Under the pieces are notes generated by a model. That model was not told the origin of the DNA, did not search any database, and was given only the letters and a program-made list of their open reading frames with translations. Shown piece by piece: positions 12,400-18,650 of a stretch of 64,000 nucleotides of DNA (positions within the stretch are counted from its first letter, which is position 1; each line of letters begins with the position of its first letter). The stretch is from contig NZ_FXUY01000001.1 of NCBI RefSeq assembly GCF_900182985.1, forward strand, positions 3,224,001-3,288,000, given 5' to 3'. A program made the position numbers and the translations under genes. The stretch is from Pseudomonas helmanticensis (lineage in GTDB: Bacteria > Pseudomonadota > Gammaproteobacteria > Pseudomonadales > Pseudomonadaceae).

Positions 12400-14193
12400 T
12401 CAGAAGTTCACGCCGAAGCTCAGGGCCACGAAGTCACGATCTTCGAGGACGTTGTAGTCGCCACCAAAAAAATCGGTGTAACTGAGGCTCGCGGTGTAGG
12501 TGTTGCGGTAGTCGGCATCGACGCCGACGCTGATCGCTTTCGCGCCTTCGTTGAACAGGCCGTTGGGGCCGTAACCGGCGACGTCATGCGACCACGACAG
12601 GTTGGGTTTGAGGTTGATCCCGCCGATCACGTTGGCGTAATCGAGGATCGCCCGGGCGCGATAGCCCCACGACGTCGAGGTGACAAAACCGTCGGTGTCG
12701 CCACCAAAACCGTACTGGCCGTAGACCGAGTCGCGGCCATAACGTAGCTGGCTGCGCGACTCCAGACCGCCGACATGCACGACCGCCGCTTCACCGACCA
12801 CGGTCAGACGCTCAGCGCCCAGCACTTGATCGAAAAAGTGCGTGAGGGTGCTCTGGATCTGCGTGACTTCCTTGCGGCGATAGCCCTTGTTGTCTGCACC
12901 CGGCGTGGTCACCAGTGGCGATGCTGTGCCAGCGGCAATTGGGTTAAGCAGCGCCAGCGTCAGGTCGTTGGTGTTGACCTGCACCGGTGCGTTCGGCCGA
13001 TAGCTGATCTCGCCGGTCCAGGCAGTACCGGTGGGCAGCGTGGTGGAAAAGCTCGCGCCATACAGGCGAATGTCTTCCGGGTATTCGAGGTAGTACTGAC
13101 CGCGTCCGAGCATCACGCTTTGCGCCAAGCCCGAACCGCTGCCAGGCGCCAGGCCGTTGGCGATGCCGACCATCGCCGGCAATGTCGCCAGCGTCGACAG
13201 GCCTGCCGTGGTGGTACCGACTGTCGGTGTGCGGCTGTGGTAATTCATGAAATAGAGGCCGTACTCAGTGTCGTCGCCCAGCCAGCGCAGCGCCGTGCCC
13301 CACTGCCCGGAATCGCGCGCGTCACGGTCGCCGCCACGGGGAACGACTACGCCCTCGCGGGTCACTTCGATGGGTTGGCCGAACGCCGCTGCCAGCGGTG
13401 CCAGCGGCGCAATCGCCGGGCTGCCGACGGTGTAGCCGTTGTTGCAGCCGTCCGCCGCGACGTCGACACCAAAGAACGTGCCGCAGTTGTCGAGAACCGT
13501 CTGATCCCATTCCAGTTGATAGAAACCTTCGACCGAAAGTTTGTCGGTGAGGCTCTGCGAGCCGAACAGCATGTTCACCGGAATCAGGCCTTCCTTGATC
13601 TCTGCGCCCGGGCGGCGGAAGGCTGAGACGTCGATCGGGTTGATGCTGTTGATCGAGTTGCCGATGAAGGTACTTTCACCCCAGCTCACCACCTGCTTGC
13701 CCGCGCGCACGGTACCTGGCAGGTCGGCGATGGTGTAGTTGTGATAGACGAAGGCATCGAGAATCTGCGCACCGGACGACTTCGCGCCCTCCTTGCGGCC
13801 ACTGTCACTGATCGGCTTGAACTCGCGGTCTTCGTCCTTCAATTCAAAGTCGTACCAATACTTGCCACGCACAAACACACCGGTGTCACCGTACTTCAGT
13901 TCGAGGTCGTGGATGCCTTTGAAGATTTTCGAGAACGTCTCGCCCTTCTTGAAGTTCAGGCGCCCGTCATCACCGGTCGAAGATTGGCCCGTGCCACCGT
14001 TGACCGTACCGACCAGCGACTTGTCGGCATCGCGCAGGCCCCAACTCGCGCCCACCGACAGCGACGAGTCGAACGTGCCTTCGATTTCCCCGATGTTGAA
14101 CGAAACCGCGTGCGCCTGGGCGCAGCAACCCAGAGCCACCGCGGCTGCCAGCGCCTGCGGTGTGAAGATGGCGCGCATTGTTGTTTTTGTCAT
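12400..14193 (-). CDS. DUF1302 outer-membrane-type protein
   Basis: A 597-aa protein starting MTKTTMRAIFTPQAL, with a GGGGAAG site upstream and a signal peptide ending near AQAHA. The mature part is rich in alternating aromatic beta strands (LRYGRDSVYGQYGFGG, YTASLSYTDFFGGDYN) and ends LSFGVNF, as expected for an outer-membrane barrel. The DUF1302 hallmark GEIEGTFDSSLSVGASWGLR opens it, followed by GKQVVSWGESTFIGNSIN. Function is unproven; the DUF1302/DUF1329 pair is thought to move hydrophobic compounds. Reading could open further upstream, but without a ribosome site or signal peptide. Confidence 0.9.
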   Translation of the reverse strand: MTKTTMRAIFTPQALAAAVALGCCAQAHAVSFNIGEIEGTFDSSLSVGASWGLRDADKSLVGTVNGGTGQSSTGDDGRLNFKKGETFSKIFKGIHDLELKYGDTGVFVRGKYWYDFELKDEDREFKPISDSGRKEGAKSSGAQILDAFVYHNYTIADLPGTVRAGKQVVSWGESTFIGNSINSINPIDVSAFRRPGAEIKEGLIPVNMLFGSQSLTDKLSVEGFYQLEWDQTVLDNCGTFFGVDVAADGCNNGYTVGSPAIAPLAPLAAAFGQPIEVTREGVVVPRGGDRDARDSGQWGTALRWLGDDTEYGLYFMNYHSRTPTVGTTTAGLSTLATLPAMVGIANGLAPGSGSGLAQSVMLGRGQYYLEYPEDIRLYGASFSTTLPTGTAWTGEISYRPNAPVQVNTNDLTLALLNPIAAGTASPLVTTPGADNKGYRRKEVTQIQSTLTHFFDQVLGAERLTVVGEAAVVHVGGLESRSQLRYGRDSVYGQYGFGGDTDGFVTSTSWGYRARAILDYANVIGGINLKPNLSWSHDVAGYGPNGLFNEGAKAISVGVDADYRNTYTASLSYTDFFGGDYNVLEDRDFVALSFGVNF

Positions 14194-14384
14194 GCGTCTT
14201 CCCCGGTGAGTGACAGAAGGCCCCACCCTACTGCCGGGCGAGCAGGTCGATAAGCGCACCAAGGAGGTATTCGCGTTGTCGCTCGAAAGGATGAATGCCC
14301 GCACCGCACGGGGCGTTGCGCGCGCCATGGACCGGCTGGATGGACGATCATCAGCGCAATGCATGGTGCGCAATCGGCCACCGG

Positions 14385-14407
14385 ACTGTTGCATGCCCCG
14401 CAACAGT
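14385..14407. promoter_or_regulatory. 23-bp inverted repeat, candidate operator
   Basis: ACTGTTGC and GCAACAGT are perfect 8-bp arms around ATGCCCC. It lies 192 bases before the DUF1302 start, in non-coding DNA. It could be the binding site of the neighbouring MalT-like LuxR regulator. No direct evidence assigns it. Confidence 0.45.
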
Positions 14408-14419
14408 GCATGTCCGGAA

Positions 14420-14640
14420 TCGCTATTTTTCCTACAGCCCCAAGCCCTTATTCTGAACGGGCTTTCACGGAATACGTCGCAAAGCACAATGCCAGCTACG
14501 CTCAGTCAGCGAAGCGATTGGCAACAGATATCAGGTGAATCGAAGCATTCGGTTGACCGTCCCGCTGTTCACTGACGTTGATTTGTAGCTCCTTGATCCA
14601 ACGTCTTACCTTGGCCGCTGCGTTTGCAGCGGCCTTTTTT
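14420..14640 (+). ncRNA. Candidate small RNA ending in an orphan terminator
   Basis: No reading frame with coding character ends here, yet a strong rightward terminator lies at 14613-14640. Just before it, GACGTT (14574) and AACGTC (14600) can pair into another stem. A 5' end cannot be fixed; 14420 is a guess from the adjacent AT-rich tract. I could not match it to RsmX/Y/Z (few GGA motifs) or CrcZ (no CA-rich motifs). Confidence 0.35.
14613..14640 (+). terminator. Strong intrinsic terminator without an upstream gene
   Basis: GGCCGCTGC and GCAGCGGCC form a perfect 9-bp stem with loop GTTT, followed by six T. On the plus strand the nearest upstream gene is hmgR, 6 kb away, so it probably ends an unannotated transcript. 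Confidence 0.85.
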
Positions 14641-14658
14641 ATGGGCGCATGAAATACC

Positions 14659-14680
14659 TTTCCTGATTTCATGCAGGAAA
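14659..14680. promoter_or_regulatory. Inverted repeat upstream of the bacteriocin gene
   Basis: TTTCCTG and CAGGAAA are perfect 7-bp arms separated by 8 bases, about 190 bases before the bacteriocin start. It may be an operator; neither a LexA box nor a certain PrtN P-box was recognised here. Confidence 0.35.
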
Positions 14681-14871
14681 TGTCCGACTCCGTGTAAGAA
14701 CTTCCCTGGCTTAAAGCCGCCGCGCTGAAACTTCATACTTTATCCACAGCAAAAACCCACACCCCTTCCGGACACTTCCGAAGCACTTTCGCTGTAACTT
14801 CAAATGGCAGAGGCAACCAGTTTCTGTGAAGTTTCAACTTCCAAAAAATGCACATTCAAAAGGATATGAAT

Positions 14872-17049
14872 ATGCAAAGGCCTCCACCGTTTGAATTAAC
14901 GGAACCGGTTCATACAATAGGTACGTTGCCGCCGTCGATGCTGCCAACTTCCGGCACAGTCGATCATTACCGCCATGGGGGCACTTTCGGTACTGTGCGA
15001 AGTCCGGCGCGTTATCAACCGATACTGCAAAGTTTCATCATCCCGCAAGAACGCGAGTTCAAAAGTAGAACCGAACAGATCCCCCAGACCATTGAAGTGG
15101 AACTGGCCGCCACGCGTCTGGAAGAGTCCACACAGCCGTTGCCACCGGCGGCCGCAATCATTCGCGAGTTGGGCGTACGCAACAAACTGATTCAACGCAA
15201 GAATCAGCAACTGCAACACCAGACAGCCCTGTCACAGCAGTTTTACGGCAGCGACCCAACTAACAAAAGCGCCGATCAGTTTCTTGCTCGCGCCAATGTC
15301 ATCGACAACCGCTTACGGCCCGACGGCCCGGGCATGAATCTGTGGAAACAGTCCTACCGCGCGGCACTCGAAGCCCGCCTGCTGACCCAGACGCTGGCGG
15401 TTCTGCACCAACAACAGATCAGCGTGCACCAATGGCTCGCAGCGGTACAAGCCAACGACCACACGCAGAACCTCGCAGCAGAAGCCACGCGCCAGGCGGC
15501 AGAACAGGCACGAATCGCCGTCGAGCAACAGCGTCAGCGAGACCTGCAGGAACAAGTCCGTCGCCAGCAGGAACAGGCAGAAATACAGGCACGCGAGCAG
15601 GCTCGACTGGCGGCATTGGCCGAGGCGCAGCGTGTGGCTGCCGAGCAGGCGCGTGTTGCTGCCGAAGCCGCCGCACAACAAATCGTCGCTGAGAAGAGGC
15701 GACTCGAAGTGCTGGCCGAACAGCAACGCCAGACTGAAGCCGACAGAGTCCGTACCGCGCAGGAAGCCCGGCAGAAGACTGAAAAAGCCCGTATCGAACA
15801 GCAACAAAAAGCCGATCGATCAGCGAAAAGAAAAAACCAGAAACAGGCACGCCGCAAAGCCCGAGCGCAGGCTCAAGAGCATGCCGAGCGCAAACGCCTG
15901 CACGCCGAATGGCAGCAGCAAACCGAAGCGCGCTGGACAAGCCCGACATTCGCCAATGCCGGCGCAGCCGCAGCTTTTGGCCCGACCTTCGCCGGAACAC
16001 TCGGCATTATTGCCAACCCTGCAACCACGACGGCGGCACTGCAGACCTCGTTGCGCACGGGTGTAGCCCTTGCGGTAGCAGCCGCTTCCACCTTCGCCGT
16101 GCCGTTTGTGGTGGGTTTCGCCGCGTTATTGGTCCCCTCCGATCTGGGCAACGGCGATCTCTATTCCGCGAGCGTTCCTCTTGCAGAGCTTGCGCCTGAC
16201 CTGGCAGTCGATCTGTATCAATTGGCAGCCTCCGGCGGTGCCGTCGATCTGCCGGTGCGGCTTGGCTCAAGGTCGCTGGGCAACCGTGTCGACATTGTCG
16301 TCGTCAGCACTGATGGCGTGGTTGTCCCGCACACAGTGCCAGTGAGACTGGCGCGGTTTGATGCGCAGAAAAACCTTTACGTTTCGAGCGCCGCTGACAT
16401 TGGAGCGAAGGGCCCCACGGTCACTTGGACGCCATTGGTCGCGCCGCTGAATCCTTCGACCGAAGCCCCTCAGGTCGAAATGGATTTGCCGATCTACGAA
16501 GGCGCCGAGGTAACCGCCGACAGCGGTCGGATCGATCTCAACCCGGTATGGGATCAATACGGATTCGGTGGCTGGATCACCGTCTTCCCGATCGACTCCG
16601 GGCTACCGCCCATCTTCACGATGTTCCGGGATCGAAGGCAGGATCCCGGGGTGGTCAGCGGAATGGGACAGGCGGTTTCGAGCAATTGGTTGGCAGCGGC
16701 AAAAACCCCGGAAGGCGCCCCGATCCCGGCGCAAATTGCGCATAAGTTTCGAGGGCGGGAGTTTTCGAGTTTCAGGGCGTTTCGCAGGGCGTTTTGGAAA
16801 GCGGTTGCAAATGATGTTTTTCTGGTTGAACAGTTTTCTCGATTTAACAAATTCGACATAAAACGAGGGCTTTCACCGACTGCCTCTGGATCAGAACGAA
16901 TTGGAGGAAAAATCAAACTAGATATTCATCATATTGAGCCTATTTTCGATGGTGGCTCGGTGTATGACGTAGACAACCTTCGCATACTCACACCCAGGCA
17001 GCACATTGAAACCCATTCAAGAATGAGAAAATTAAAAAATGAAGCCTAA
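14872..17049 (+). CDS. S-type pyocin/colicin-like bacteriocin with HNH DNase
   Basis: A 725-aa toxin. The start at 14872 has AAGGA 7 bases upstream; ATGs at 14848 and 14866 are alternatives. Layout: an N-terminal part of unknown receptor specificity (to ~200); a long charged helical region rich in Ala/Gln/Glu/Arg (~200-347), suited to receptor binding; a hydrophobic Ala/Gly stretch (~363-427); a pyocin-S translocation domain (~430-585, ending PPIFTMFRDRR); and a colicin E9-type DNase (~590-725) from VSSNWLAAAKTPEGAPIP. The HNH motif is complete: LDIHHIEP, GGSVYDVDNLR and TPRQHIETH, with family spacing. The residue before IHH is Asp where E-colicins have Glu. Cognate immunity overlaps the 3' end. 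It should kill related pseudomonads by degrading DNA. Confidence 0.93.
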   Translation: MQRPPPFELTEPVHTIGTLPPSMLPTSGTVDHYRHGGTFGTVRSPARYQPILQSFIIPQEREFKSRTEQIPQTIEVELAATRLEESTQPLPPAAAIIRELGVRNKLIQRKNQQLQHQTALSQQFYGSDPTNKSADQFLARANVIDNRLRPDGPGMNLWKQSYRAALEARLLTQTLAVLHQQQISVHQWLAAVQANDHTQNLAAEATRQAAEQARIAVEQQRQRDLQEQVRRQQEQAEIQAREQARLAALAEAQRVAAEQARVAAEAAAQQIVAEKRRLEVLAEQQRQTEADRVRTAQEARQKTEKARIEQQQKADRSAKRKNQKQARRKARAQAQEHAERKRLHAEWQQQTEARWTSPTFANAGAAAAFGPTFAGTLGIIANPATTTAALQTSLRTGVALAVAAASTFAVPFVVGFAALLVPSDLGNGDLYSASVPLAELAPDLAVDLYQLAASGGAVDLPVRLGSRSLGNRVDIVVVSTDGVVVPHTVPVRLARFDAQKNLYVSSAADIGAKGPTVTWTPLVAPLNPSTEAPQVEMDLPIYEGAEVTADSGRIDLNPVWDQYGFGGWITVFPIDSGLPPIFTMFRDRRQDPGVVSGMGQAVSSNWLAAAKTPEGAPIPAQIAHKFRGREFSSFRAFRRAFWKAVANDVFLVEQFSRFNKFDIKRGLSPTASGSERIGGKIKLDIHHIEPIFDGGSVYDVDNLRILTPRQHIETHSRMRKLKNEA

Positions 17050-17302
17050 TAAGAAATTTGAGGAATATACAGAAGCAGAGTACATATCTCTCATCAATCG
17101 TTTGGTTGAGGGCGATTACTCATCAGAGAAAGAACACGACGCTATTGTCAACGAGATTATTCTATCGTCTGAGCATCCCAATGGAACAGACGTTCTTTAC
17201 TATCCCGAGGACGGTACGGACGACAGTCCAGCTGGGGTATTAGAAACTATAAAATCCTGGCGCACTGTCAATGGAAAACCTGGATTCAAAACACAACAGT
17301 AA
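17039..17302 (+). CDS. Colicin/pyocin DNase immunity protein, copy 1
   Basis: An 87-aa acidic Im2/Im9-like four-helix protein that would bind and block the DNase exosite before release. Family marks are YTEAEYISLINRL, SEHPNGTDVLYYPEDGTDD and WRTVNGKPGFK; the Tyr-Tyr-Pro contact motif is intact. It overlaps the bacteriocin 3' end by 11 bases, so it is translationally coupled and the natural cognate partner. DNA here is clearly more AT-rich than the flanking core genes, consistent with horizontal origin. Confidence 0.93.
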   Translation: MKPNKKFEEYTEAEYISLINRLVEGDYSSEKEHDAIVNEIILSSEHPNGTDVLYYPEDGTDDSPAGVLETIKSWRTVNGKPGFKTQQ

Positions 17303-17321
17303 TAAAAAGGCAGATTTTTAA

Positions 17322-17585
17322 TTGAAGCTAAAAAATGCGCTAACAGACTATACAGAGGCCGAATATCTAGAAATCATACAGCGCTTATTTAAAGGGAAAT
17401 TACCTTCGGAAGAACAGCATGACGAGCTTGTCGATCACATCGTAAAAACCTCCGAACACCCGAATGGAACCGGAGTGCTCTACTACCCCGAAGAAGGTAT
17501 TGAGGACAGCCCAGAAGGCGTATTAGGAGCCATTAAAGCCTGGCGCGCAGCCAACGGAAAACCCGGATTCAAAACCGAGGAATGA
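17322..17585 (+). CDS. Second colicin/pyocin DNase immunity protein, copy 2
   Basis: An 87-aa paralogue of the preceding gene, starting at TTG (MKLKNALTDYTEAEYLEIIQ; an AAAAAGG lies upstream). It keeps SEHPNGTGVLYYPEEG and WRAANGKPGFK. The helix II specificity segment differs: HDELVDHIVKTSEHP here against HDAIVNEIILSSEHP in copy 1. It begins 19 bases after copy 1. It may widen protection to a competitor toxin or be left from an earlier toxin swap; which toxin it blocks cannot be told from sequence. Confidence 0.9.
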   Translation: MKLKNALTDYTEAEYLEIIQRLFKGKLPSEEQHDELVDHIVKTSEHPNGTGVLYYPEEGIEDSPEGVLGAIKAWRAANGKPGFKTEE

Positions 17586-17587
17586 AA

Positions 17588-17622
17588 AAAAAGCGAGCAG
17601 GCTTCAACGCCTGCTCGCTTTC
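17588..17622. terminator. Bidirectional terminator between immunity genes and SDR
   Basis: GCGAGCAGG and CCTGCTCGC form a 9-bp stem with loop CTTCAACG, with an A run on the left and T-rich DNA on the right. It starts just after the second immunity stop and lies just beyond the convergent SDR gene stop. Confidence 0.75.
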
Positions 17623-17629
17623 GCTTCGA

Positions 17630-18541
17630 TTACAACGAGTACTTCTGCAAATTCGCCATCATTTCCTTCAGCGCCTCGATATTGTCCTTCGGATGCGCCG
17701 CCCCTTCGAAATCGCAAATCTGCTGCCAATGCGCGGCAACGTCCTCAGGCGAGAAACCCGCACGCGGATCGAACCCGGCGCCCAGGCTGCGTTCCCAGCG
17801 CACTTTGCCCATCCAGCCGCCACCGACTTCGAACAATCCGGAAGTCTCCTGGCACTGTTCGCTCGCCAGGTACACCACCAACGGGCTGACCAGCTCCGGT
17901 TTGAGTTGCTCGAACACTTGTGGCGGGATCAGGCCTTCGGTCATGCGCGTGCCGCCGGTTGGCGCGATGGCGTTGACCAGAATGTTGTTCTTGCGACCTT
18001 CGATGGCCAGGGTGCGGGTCAGACCATAGAGGCCGAGTTTGGCCATGCCGTAGTTGGACTGGCCGAAGTTGCCGTAGATACCCGAGGTCGAAGCCGTGAA
18101 GATCACGCGGCCGTAGTTTTGCTCGCGCAGATGCGGCCATGCGGCGCGGGTGACTTTGTAGGCGCCTTCGACGTGGACGCGATACACCAGATCCCAGTCG
18201 GCGTCGTCCATTTTGTGGAAGGTCTTGTCGCGCAGGATACCGGCGTTGTTGACCACCACGTCGACGCGGCCGAAGGCATCGAGAGCGTTCTGTACGAGTT
18301 TGTCGCCGTCGGTGACCGAGTCGTGGTTGGCTTCGGCGATACCGCCGGCCTGACGGATTTCCGCGACCACGCGATCGGCAGCGGAAGCATTCGCGCCCTC
18401 GCCCTGCGTCGAGCCGCCGAGGTCGTTGACCAGCACTTTGGCGCCCTGCTTGGCGAACAGCAGCGCATGAGCGCGACCGAGGCCACCACCGGCTCCGGTG
18501 ACGATTACGACTTTATCTTCGAAACGCACAGACTCATTCAT
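17630..18541 (-). CDS. SDR oxidoreductase, MFE-2-like 3-hydroxyacyl-CoA dehydrogenase type
   Basis: A 303-aa short-chain dehydrogenase beginning MNESVRFEDKVVIVTG (GGAG upstream). The cofactor motif is TGAGGGLGRAHALLFAKQG, then NDLGGS, NNAGILRDKTF and the catalytic YGMAKLG with upstream Ser. The NDLGG and ILRDKTFHKM blocks are typical of the peroxisomal multifunctional enzyme type 2 dehydrogenase group. The extra C-terminal ~45 residues (GFDPRAGFSPEDVAAHWQQI) also occur there. It probably oxidises a 3-hydroxyacyl-CoA; the exact substrate is unknown. Confidence 0.88.
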   Translation of the reverse strand: MNESVRFEDKVVIVTGAGGGLGRAHALLFAKQGAKVLVNDLGGSTQGEGANASAADRVVAEIRQAGGIAEANHDSVTDGDKLVQNALDAFGRVDVVVNNAGILRDKTFHKMDDADWDLVYRVHVEGAYKVTRAAWPHLREQNYGRVIFTASTSGIYGNFGQSNYGMAKLGLYGLTRTLAIEGRKNNILVNAIAPTGGTRMTEGLIPPQVFEQLKPELVSPLVVYLASEQCQETSGLFEVGGGWMGKVRWERSLGAGFDPRAGFSPEDVAAHWQQICDFEGAAHPKDNIEALKEMMANLQKYSL

Positions 18542-18650
18542 CGCGGCAACTCCAGCAGGCCAGTATTGACCCCGAGTGTCAGGCACGCGGCTTTCGGTCA
18601 CAACGAATACGGCAGAGGCTGAATGGTGCGCGATAAGGTTGGGGGATAGT

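What the first reader, a model, noticed from the sequence alone, without database searches (positions are those of the whole stretch)
14872..17585. S-type pyocin DNase with two tandem, divergent immunity genes
The HNH DNase keeps full colicin E9 spacing, and the gene is followed by two Im paralogues rather than one. Their shared contact motif (YYP) is intact but helix II, the specificity element, differs. The second starts at TTG and lies 19 bases on. This could give protection against a competitor toxin, or mark an ongoing toxin swap. The N-terminal half and its long charged helical arm do not match a receptor class I recognise. The immunity region is AT-rich, unlike its neighbours.
Basis: partly seen in the sequence, partly recalled or inferred. 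Interest (0 to 1): 0.78.

Follow-up and report, generated by a model that had tools for sequence, protein, structure and literature searches.

The report
Pyocin with a leftover immunity gene
A Pseudomonas bacterium carries a DNA-cutting bacteriocin with its matching antidote gene, followed by a second antidote gene that most likely belonged to an earlier version of the toxin and was later spliced with a third antidote gene; the general phenomenon is known, and this is a clear, finely preserved example.

Summary
In detail: a 725-aa S-type pyocin (Pyocin_S, Col-Pyo_DNase) is followed by two Im7-like immunity genes, 57% identical and 19 bp apart. They are not a recent duplication. Im1 pairs with the only Im beside a DNase 72% identical to ours (support 100/98), Im2 with the only Im beside a DNase 66% identical (100/86); the toxin-facing segments split the same way. 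So Im1 is most likely the cognate antidote and Im2 an orphan from a displaced DNase module. Against its near-twin DTU12.3, Im2 is itself a hybrid: codons 1-60 match that strain's second (frameshifted) Im gene, codons 61-87 its third. The toxin sits in a fixed slot: of 90 slots surveyed, 33 hold a Pyocin_S toxin and 16 a full HNH DNase; 7 of those 16 have two or three Ims, all with DNase scraps, which the window lacks. The N-terminus is predicted to fold like pyocins S5/S2. Orphan pyocin immunity (PMC4905994) and immunity arrays (PMC5361080) are published; I found no print of a hybrid Im. Protection by Im2 is inferred.

The parts
14850..14877 (+). Conserved leader GCACATTCAAAAGGA(T/C)ATGAATATGCAA: Shine-Dalgarno and start region, predicted hairpin with the GGA in the loop
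14872..17049 (+). S-type pyocin, 725 aa (ORF can be read from 14848, 733 aa)
15001..15453 (+). Residues 44-194: predicted helical bundle resembling pyocin S5 domain 1 and pyocin S2 (kinked three-helix bundle)
15469..15939 (+). Residues ~200-356: long charged helical arm, predicted as long helices broken near 268-277 (modest confidence)
16216..16623 (+). Pyocin_S domain, residues 449-584; residues ~353-577 resemble colicin D/E3/E9 translocation domains
16648..17016 (+). Col-Pyo HNH DNase domain, residues 593-715; its last ~75 residues are AT-rich like the Ims
17039..17302 (+). Im1, probable cognate immunity protein (87 aa)
17322..17585 (+). Im2, orphan immunity protein (87 aa), TTG start
17502..17503 (+). 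Hybrid joint in Im2, after codon 60: left side matches DTU12.3 Im gene 2, right side and 3' flank match DTU12.3 Im gene 3
12400..14487 (-). Left flank of the slot: gene that I label OMP1302 (label recalled, no family search run)
17630..18601 (-). Right flank of the slot: gene that I label SDR (label recalled, no family search run)

Best explanation
A polymorphic DNase pyocin in a fixed chromosomal slot. The AT-rich C-terminal half of the DNase together with Im1 probably came in as a replacement module; Im1 is the cognate antidote, bound to the DNase exosite until the toxin enters a target cell (mechanism from the known E9/pyocin family). Im2 is the antidote of a displaced DNase of the type now seen in G036 and G111, kept downstream. 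Later, recombination between neighbouring Im genes (a three-gene state like that still seen in DTU12.3) fused the head of that antidote (codons 1-60, which hold the loop, helix II and YYP segments) to the tail of a third one. Im2 probably still protects against strains with the older DNase. Shown: anatomy, separate ancestry of Im1 and Im2, hybrid structure relative to DTU12.3, slot and DNase scraps elsewhere. Inferred: order of events, binding partners, protection.
For: Im tree of 70 Ims: W_Im1 with the first-position Im of L039 (G029) 100/98; W_Im2 with that of L033 (G036) 100/86, then L035 (G111) 100/89. Exosite: ours KFDIKRGLSPTA, G029 KFDIKNGLSPTA, G036 KTDLRDGLAPSA; Im1's NRLVEGDYSSEKEHDAIV is identical in G029's Im, and Im2's segment resembles G036's. 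G036's Im also starts with TTG. DTU12.3 is 99.0% identical over 6,576 bp but has three Im genes, the second frameshifted; P0121 (5 member sequences) shows the Im2-tail/Im3 arrangement beyond DTU12.3, P0123 an Im2-type protein with its own tail, so the window's form looks derived. Slot survey: 7 of 16 full-DNase slots have 2-3 Ims, all 7 with DNase fragments. G199's slot is G062's with the toxin gone and the last DNase codons plus Im kept (98.98% over 492 bp). 69 of 80 tandem Ims have their nearest relative in another genome.
Against: The window and DTU12.3 have no DNase scrap between the Ims, unlike the 7 multi-Im slots, so the displacement step is not directly recorded here. Im2 is only 78% identical to its best partner, codons 1-60 only 76%. 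The tree rests on 86 columns and the program warns that many forks cannot be resolved. The correlation test separates Im1 from Im2 only modestly (exosite against Im residues 23-41: rho 0.55 against 0.35). Im2 has a TTG start and a weak upstream AAGG, and its DTU12.3 counterpart is frameshifted, so it may be on the way out. 11 of 80 tandem Ims elsewhere do have an array mate as nearest relative.
Confidence: 0.68

Rival explanations
1. Im2 is a relic: a displaced immunity gene that no longer protects, in decay, its hybrid form an accident of deletion.
For: Its DTU12.3 counterpart is frameshifted; TTG start with weak upstream AAGG; the hybrid is found only in the window's own contig in the protein search (P0122, 1 member).
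Against: The window copy is an intact 87-codon frame with a full Pfam score; dN 0.14-0.17 with dS saturated or 2.5 against the G036/G111 Ims, which is long-term constraint, not proof of present function; the joint leaves the toxin-facing segments from one parent.
Confidence: 0.2
2. Both Ims neutralise the strain's own DNase (backup or dual immunity, as for the T6SS toxin Tde5 with two immunity proteins).
For: Both keep YYP and lie 19 bp apart on one strand. Dual immunity exists for Tde5 (PMC13392607, abstract).
Against: Tde5's two antidotes are structurally distinct and bind different surfaces (abstract), whereas these are paralogues; their specificity segments and best partners differ.
Confidence: 0.1
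3. Simple recent duplication of the cognate Im without new specificity.
For: Tandem position; similar short spacers ahead of the window's Im2 and the third Im of DTU12.3.
Against: Each Im has closer relatives in other genomes (82% and 78%) than in its neighbour (56-57%).
Confidence: 0.02

Closest known systems
P. aeruginosa PAO1 pyocin S2 locus with orphan S6 immunity gene (PMC4905994, passages seen)
   Same: S-type pyocin locus with an extra immunity gene from a lost toxin; there preceded by a 3' scrap of the toxin gene and shown to protect
   Different: There the orphan belongs to another nuclease class (rRNase); here both Ims are of the HNH-DNase class, no toxin scrap remains, and the orphan is a hybrid
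V. cholerae T6SS immunity gene arrays by sequential displacement (PMC5361080, abstract and section 13)
   Same: New effector-immunity module pushes older immunity genes downstream; tandem genes are not each other's closest relatives
   Different: Diffusible pyocin, not T6SS
Additional immunity genes downstream of Pseudomonas bacteriocin pairs (PMC5358913 discussion, passages)
   Same: States that such extra genes occur and may serve to trap invading pyocins
   Different: No hybrid Im in the passages seen
Colicin E plasmids with a second immunity gene (ColE3-CA38, ColE9-J; recalled, no call)
   Same: Extra immunity gene beside the cognate one
   Different: Plasmid-borne, enterobacterial
Pyocin S8, S2, AP41 and colicin E9 DNase-Im pairs (PDB sequence matches)
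   Same: Same DNase and Im families
   Different: These are single DNase-Im complexes

Membership tests
S-type HNH DNase pyocin | Pyocin_S domain followed by Col-Pyo DNase domain | tested here: met
S-type HNH DNase pyocin | HNH residues (E9 H102, H103, N118, H127, H131; numbering recalled) | tested here: met
   All five identical in the window; K at 96 and D at 100, both seen in other natural DNases
S-type HNH DNase pyocin | Kills other strains; DNase activity | not testable with these tools
   needs bench work
Im7-like colicin/pyocin immunity protein (PF01320) | Family profile and YYP motif | tested here: met
   Im2 has G, not D, at Im9 position 51, as 10 of 71 first-position Ims do
Im7-like colicin/pyocin immunity protein (PF01320) | Tight inhibition of a cognate DNase | not testable with these tools
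   needs binding assays
Orphan immunity gene left by toxin displacement | Orphan's nearest relatives are Ims beside other toxins, not its neighbour | tested here: met
Orphan immunity gene left by toxin displacement | Typical but not defining: scrap of the displaced toxin gene before the orphan | tested here: not met
   Only a 19-bp spacer in the window; scraps are present in all 7 multi-Im DNase slots of the survey. The published model also has steps that replace the old effector without a scrap (PMC5361080 section 13), and tight arrays without scraps occur elsewhere
Orphan immunity gene left by toxin displacement | Protects against the former toxin | not testable with these tools
   needs bench work
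kTHB receptor domain (pyocin S5/S2) | Kinked three-helix bundle after a disordered N-terminus | tested here: inconclusive

The most novel reading that the evidence does not exclude
Tandem immunity arrays in Pseudomonas are working reservoirs in which neighbouring Im genes recombine behind helix III, so that toxin-facing heads are kept while tails are exchanged and copies are lost or fused: an array is a standing memory of past toxins that is continually reshuffled, and Im2 is a functional product of it.
Probability: 0.15. Interest if true: 0.6.

Novelty: new member of a known kind. Interest (0 to 1): 0.4.

Why it matters
It shows, between two near-identical loci, how an immunity array can shrink by recombination between antidote genes, and it gives a defined chromosomal slot in which toxin replacement and immunity retention can be counted across part of a genus. 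If Im2 protects, it explains resistance to a toxin that the strain does not make.

Tried and rejected
Simple duplication: rejected. Im2 as cognate of the present DNase because of equal YYP motifs: not favoured. A before/after pair in the same slot, G349 and P. frederiksbergensis AS1 (97.8% identical over 2,725 bp up to within the DNase): not a simple swap, because AS1's second Im is not G349's Im. LexA-type CTG-N10-CAG site within 260 bp upstream of the toxin: in 2 of 28 slot pyocins, not in the window. Rfam on 14500-17700: one match, below its gathering score (suhB, 21.2 against 41 bits). Foldseek against the PDB: the 50 rows shown are DNase or colicin E9 chains; the N-terminal match came only from VIA-align. 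The survey paper of nuclease bacteriocins PMC5536347 has no 'orphan', 'two immunity' or 'multiple immunity' in its main text (passages). The whole-toxin model is only moderate (mean pLDDT 69.1, pTM 0.35); the second structure job was not used. NG86 dS came back saturated for some pairs, so dN/dS says only that long-term constraint is likely. One fetched stretch (10 bases, L255) was useless.

Full report
What is there. The toxin reads from 14872 (725 aa); a Shine-Dalgarno-like AAAAGGA ends about 6 nt before that ATG. Im1 overlaps the toxin's end, Im2 follows after 19 bp; they are 57% identical. The AT-rich stretch starts within the DNase domain: residues 1-60 57.5% GC, 61-135 40.2%, Im1 42.0%, Im2 47.0%. 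Against PDB sequences, Im1 is nearest to the pyocin S8 antidote and Im2 to Im7/Im9 types; the toxin to klebicin G, and its DNase to S8 and AP41.

Where it sits. In many Pseudomonas loci the same interval, between the genes at 12400-14487 and 17630-18601, holds a pyocin. For a sample not chosen by immunity genes I took the 96 best SDR matches after the window's own in a search of 398 genus genomes, dropped 2 at contig ends, fetched 80 and reused 14 already held; 4 of the 94 lacked both flanks together. Of the 90 left, 50 have no hit to the N-terminal, Pyocin_S, DNase or Im probes, 33 have Pyocin_S, 16 a full HNH DNase (one of them without Pyocin_S), 18 Pyocin_S without a full DNase (their killing domains were not examined). 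Im counts in the 16: one in 9, two in 5, three in 2. All 7 multi-Im slots have DNase fragments (in L200 the extra Im and the fragments lie upstream of the pyocin); 5 further slots have an Im without a full DNase. The window and DTU12.3 are not in these counts. The sample takes closer relatives first, so the rates are not genus-wide.

Separate ancestry. In a tree of 70 of 140 different Ims (those at least 48% identical to Im1 or Im2; 86 columns, many forks unresolved), Im1 pairs with the only Im at the G029 locus (100/98) and Im2 with the only Im at the G036 locus (100/86), then G111 (100/89). Their DNases are 72% (G029) and 66% (G036) identical to ours. At the exosite our DNase shares KFDIK-GLSPTA with G029; G036 and G111 have K-DLRDGLAPSA. 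The Im segment NRLVEGDYSSEKEHDAIV is identical in Im1 and G029's Im; Im2's resembles G036's. That these elements set specificity is from PMC7884437 (passages). Correlations of the window with the other 70 first-position pairs lean the same way, but only modestly. Over all arrays, 69 of 80 tandem Ims have their nearest relative in another genome, 11 in the array (89 loci kept; 16 loci sharing an Im with another, DTU12.3 among them, dropped).

The hybrid. Pseudomonas sp. DTU12.3 (L068) matches the window at 99.0% over 6,576 bp but has three Im genes: Im1 (identical protein), a second that is frameshifted, and a third, 76% identical to window Im2. Window Im2 equals the second gene up to codon 60 apart from two small differences, and the third gene from codon 61 through its 3' flank; the joint is at 17502-17503. 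A 129-aa protein cluster (P0121, 5 members) has the tail of the second gene running in frame into the third, and P0123, from a metagenome source, is an Im2-type protein with its own tail. The three-Im form therefore looks older, and the window's derived by recombination between neighbours with loss of about 280 bp. The reverse (a gain in DTU12.3) is less simple but not excluded.

Other stages elsewhere. G199's slot keeps the last ~53 DNase codons and the Im of G062's pyocin without the toxin (98.98% over 492 bp). G178's second Im, behind a DNase scrap, is 98% identical to G349's first-position Im. SDR 3'-end scraps lie inside 4 of the 90 slots (L040, L149, L151, L153) and in L051, outside the survey. 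Outside the slot, DNase pyocins with three to five tight, divergent Ims occur (L248, L249, L253; these were picked because they had several Ims).

Verdict. Known kind: orphan pyocin immunity from a lost toxin is published with proof of protection (PMC4905994, passages), and so is the displacement model (PMC5361080, abstract and section 13). Five paper searches (only 72 aimed at it) showed no account of hybrid Im genes in their listings; they cover only the held library, and the listings were capped at 15 to 20 rows.

Noticed in passing
window 14850-14877; L227-L247: A leader GCACATTCAAAAGGA(T/C)ATGAATATGCAA is kept, with small variations, in front of all 28 slot pyocins aligned (window and DTU12.3 included) although the DNA upstream differs; found in 36 of 62 distinct hits to the N-terminal domain, many misses being partial or distant hits. 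21 exact hits in 19 of 199 genus genomes (reversed-pattern control 0), all 21 loci with this N-terminal domain nearby. Predicted hairpin with GGA in the loop (z -3.05 for 33 nt, only -0.56 for 61 nt): possibly an Rsm/CsrA-type control site, a guess.
   Followed up: partly
L068 6845-7261; P0121: In DTU12.3 and in protein cluster P0121 the tail of one Im runs in frame into the next Im.
   Followed up: partly
L040, L149, L151, L153, L051: Pieces of the SDR gene's 3' end inside the slot, probably scars of past insertions.
   Followed up: no
L248 5247-6767 (G097): One DNase pyocin followed by five tandem Ims, 46-59% identical to each other.
   Followed up: no
L252 5881-7275 (G128): Three successive units of partial DNase plus Im.
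   Followed up: no
G000:C2 ~1429.7-1430.3 kb (L063 8655-9290): A second HNH DNase with its own Im (41% identical to Im1) elsewhere in the same genome.
   Followed up: no
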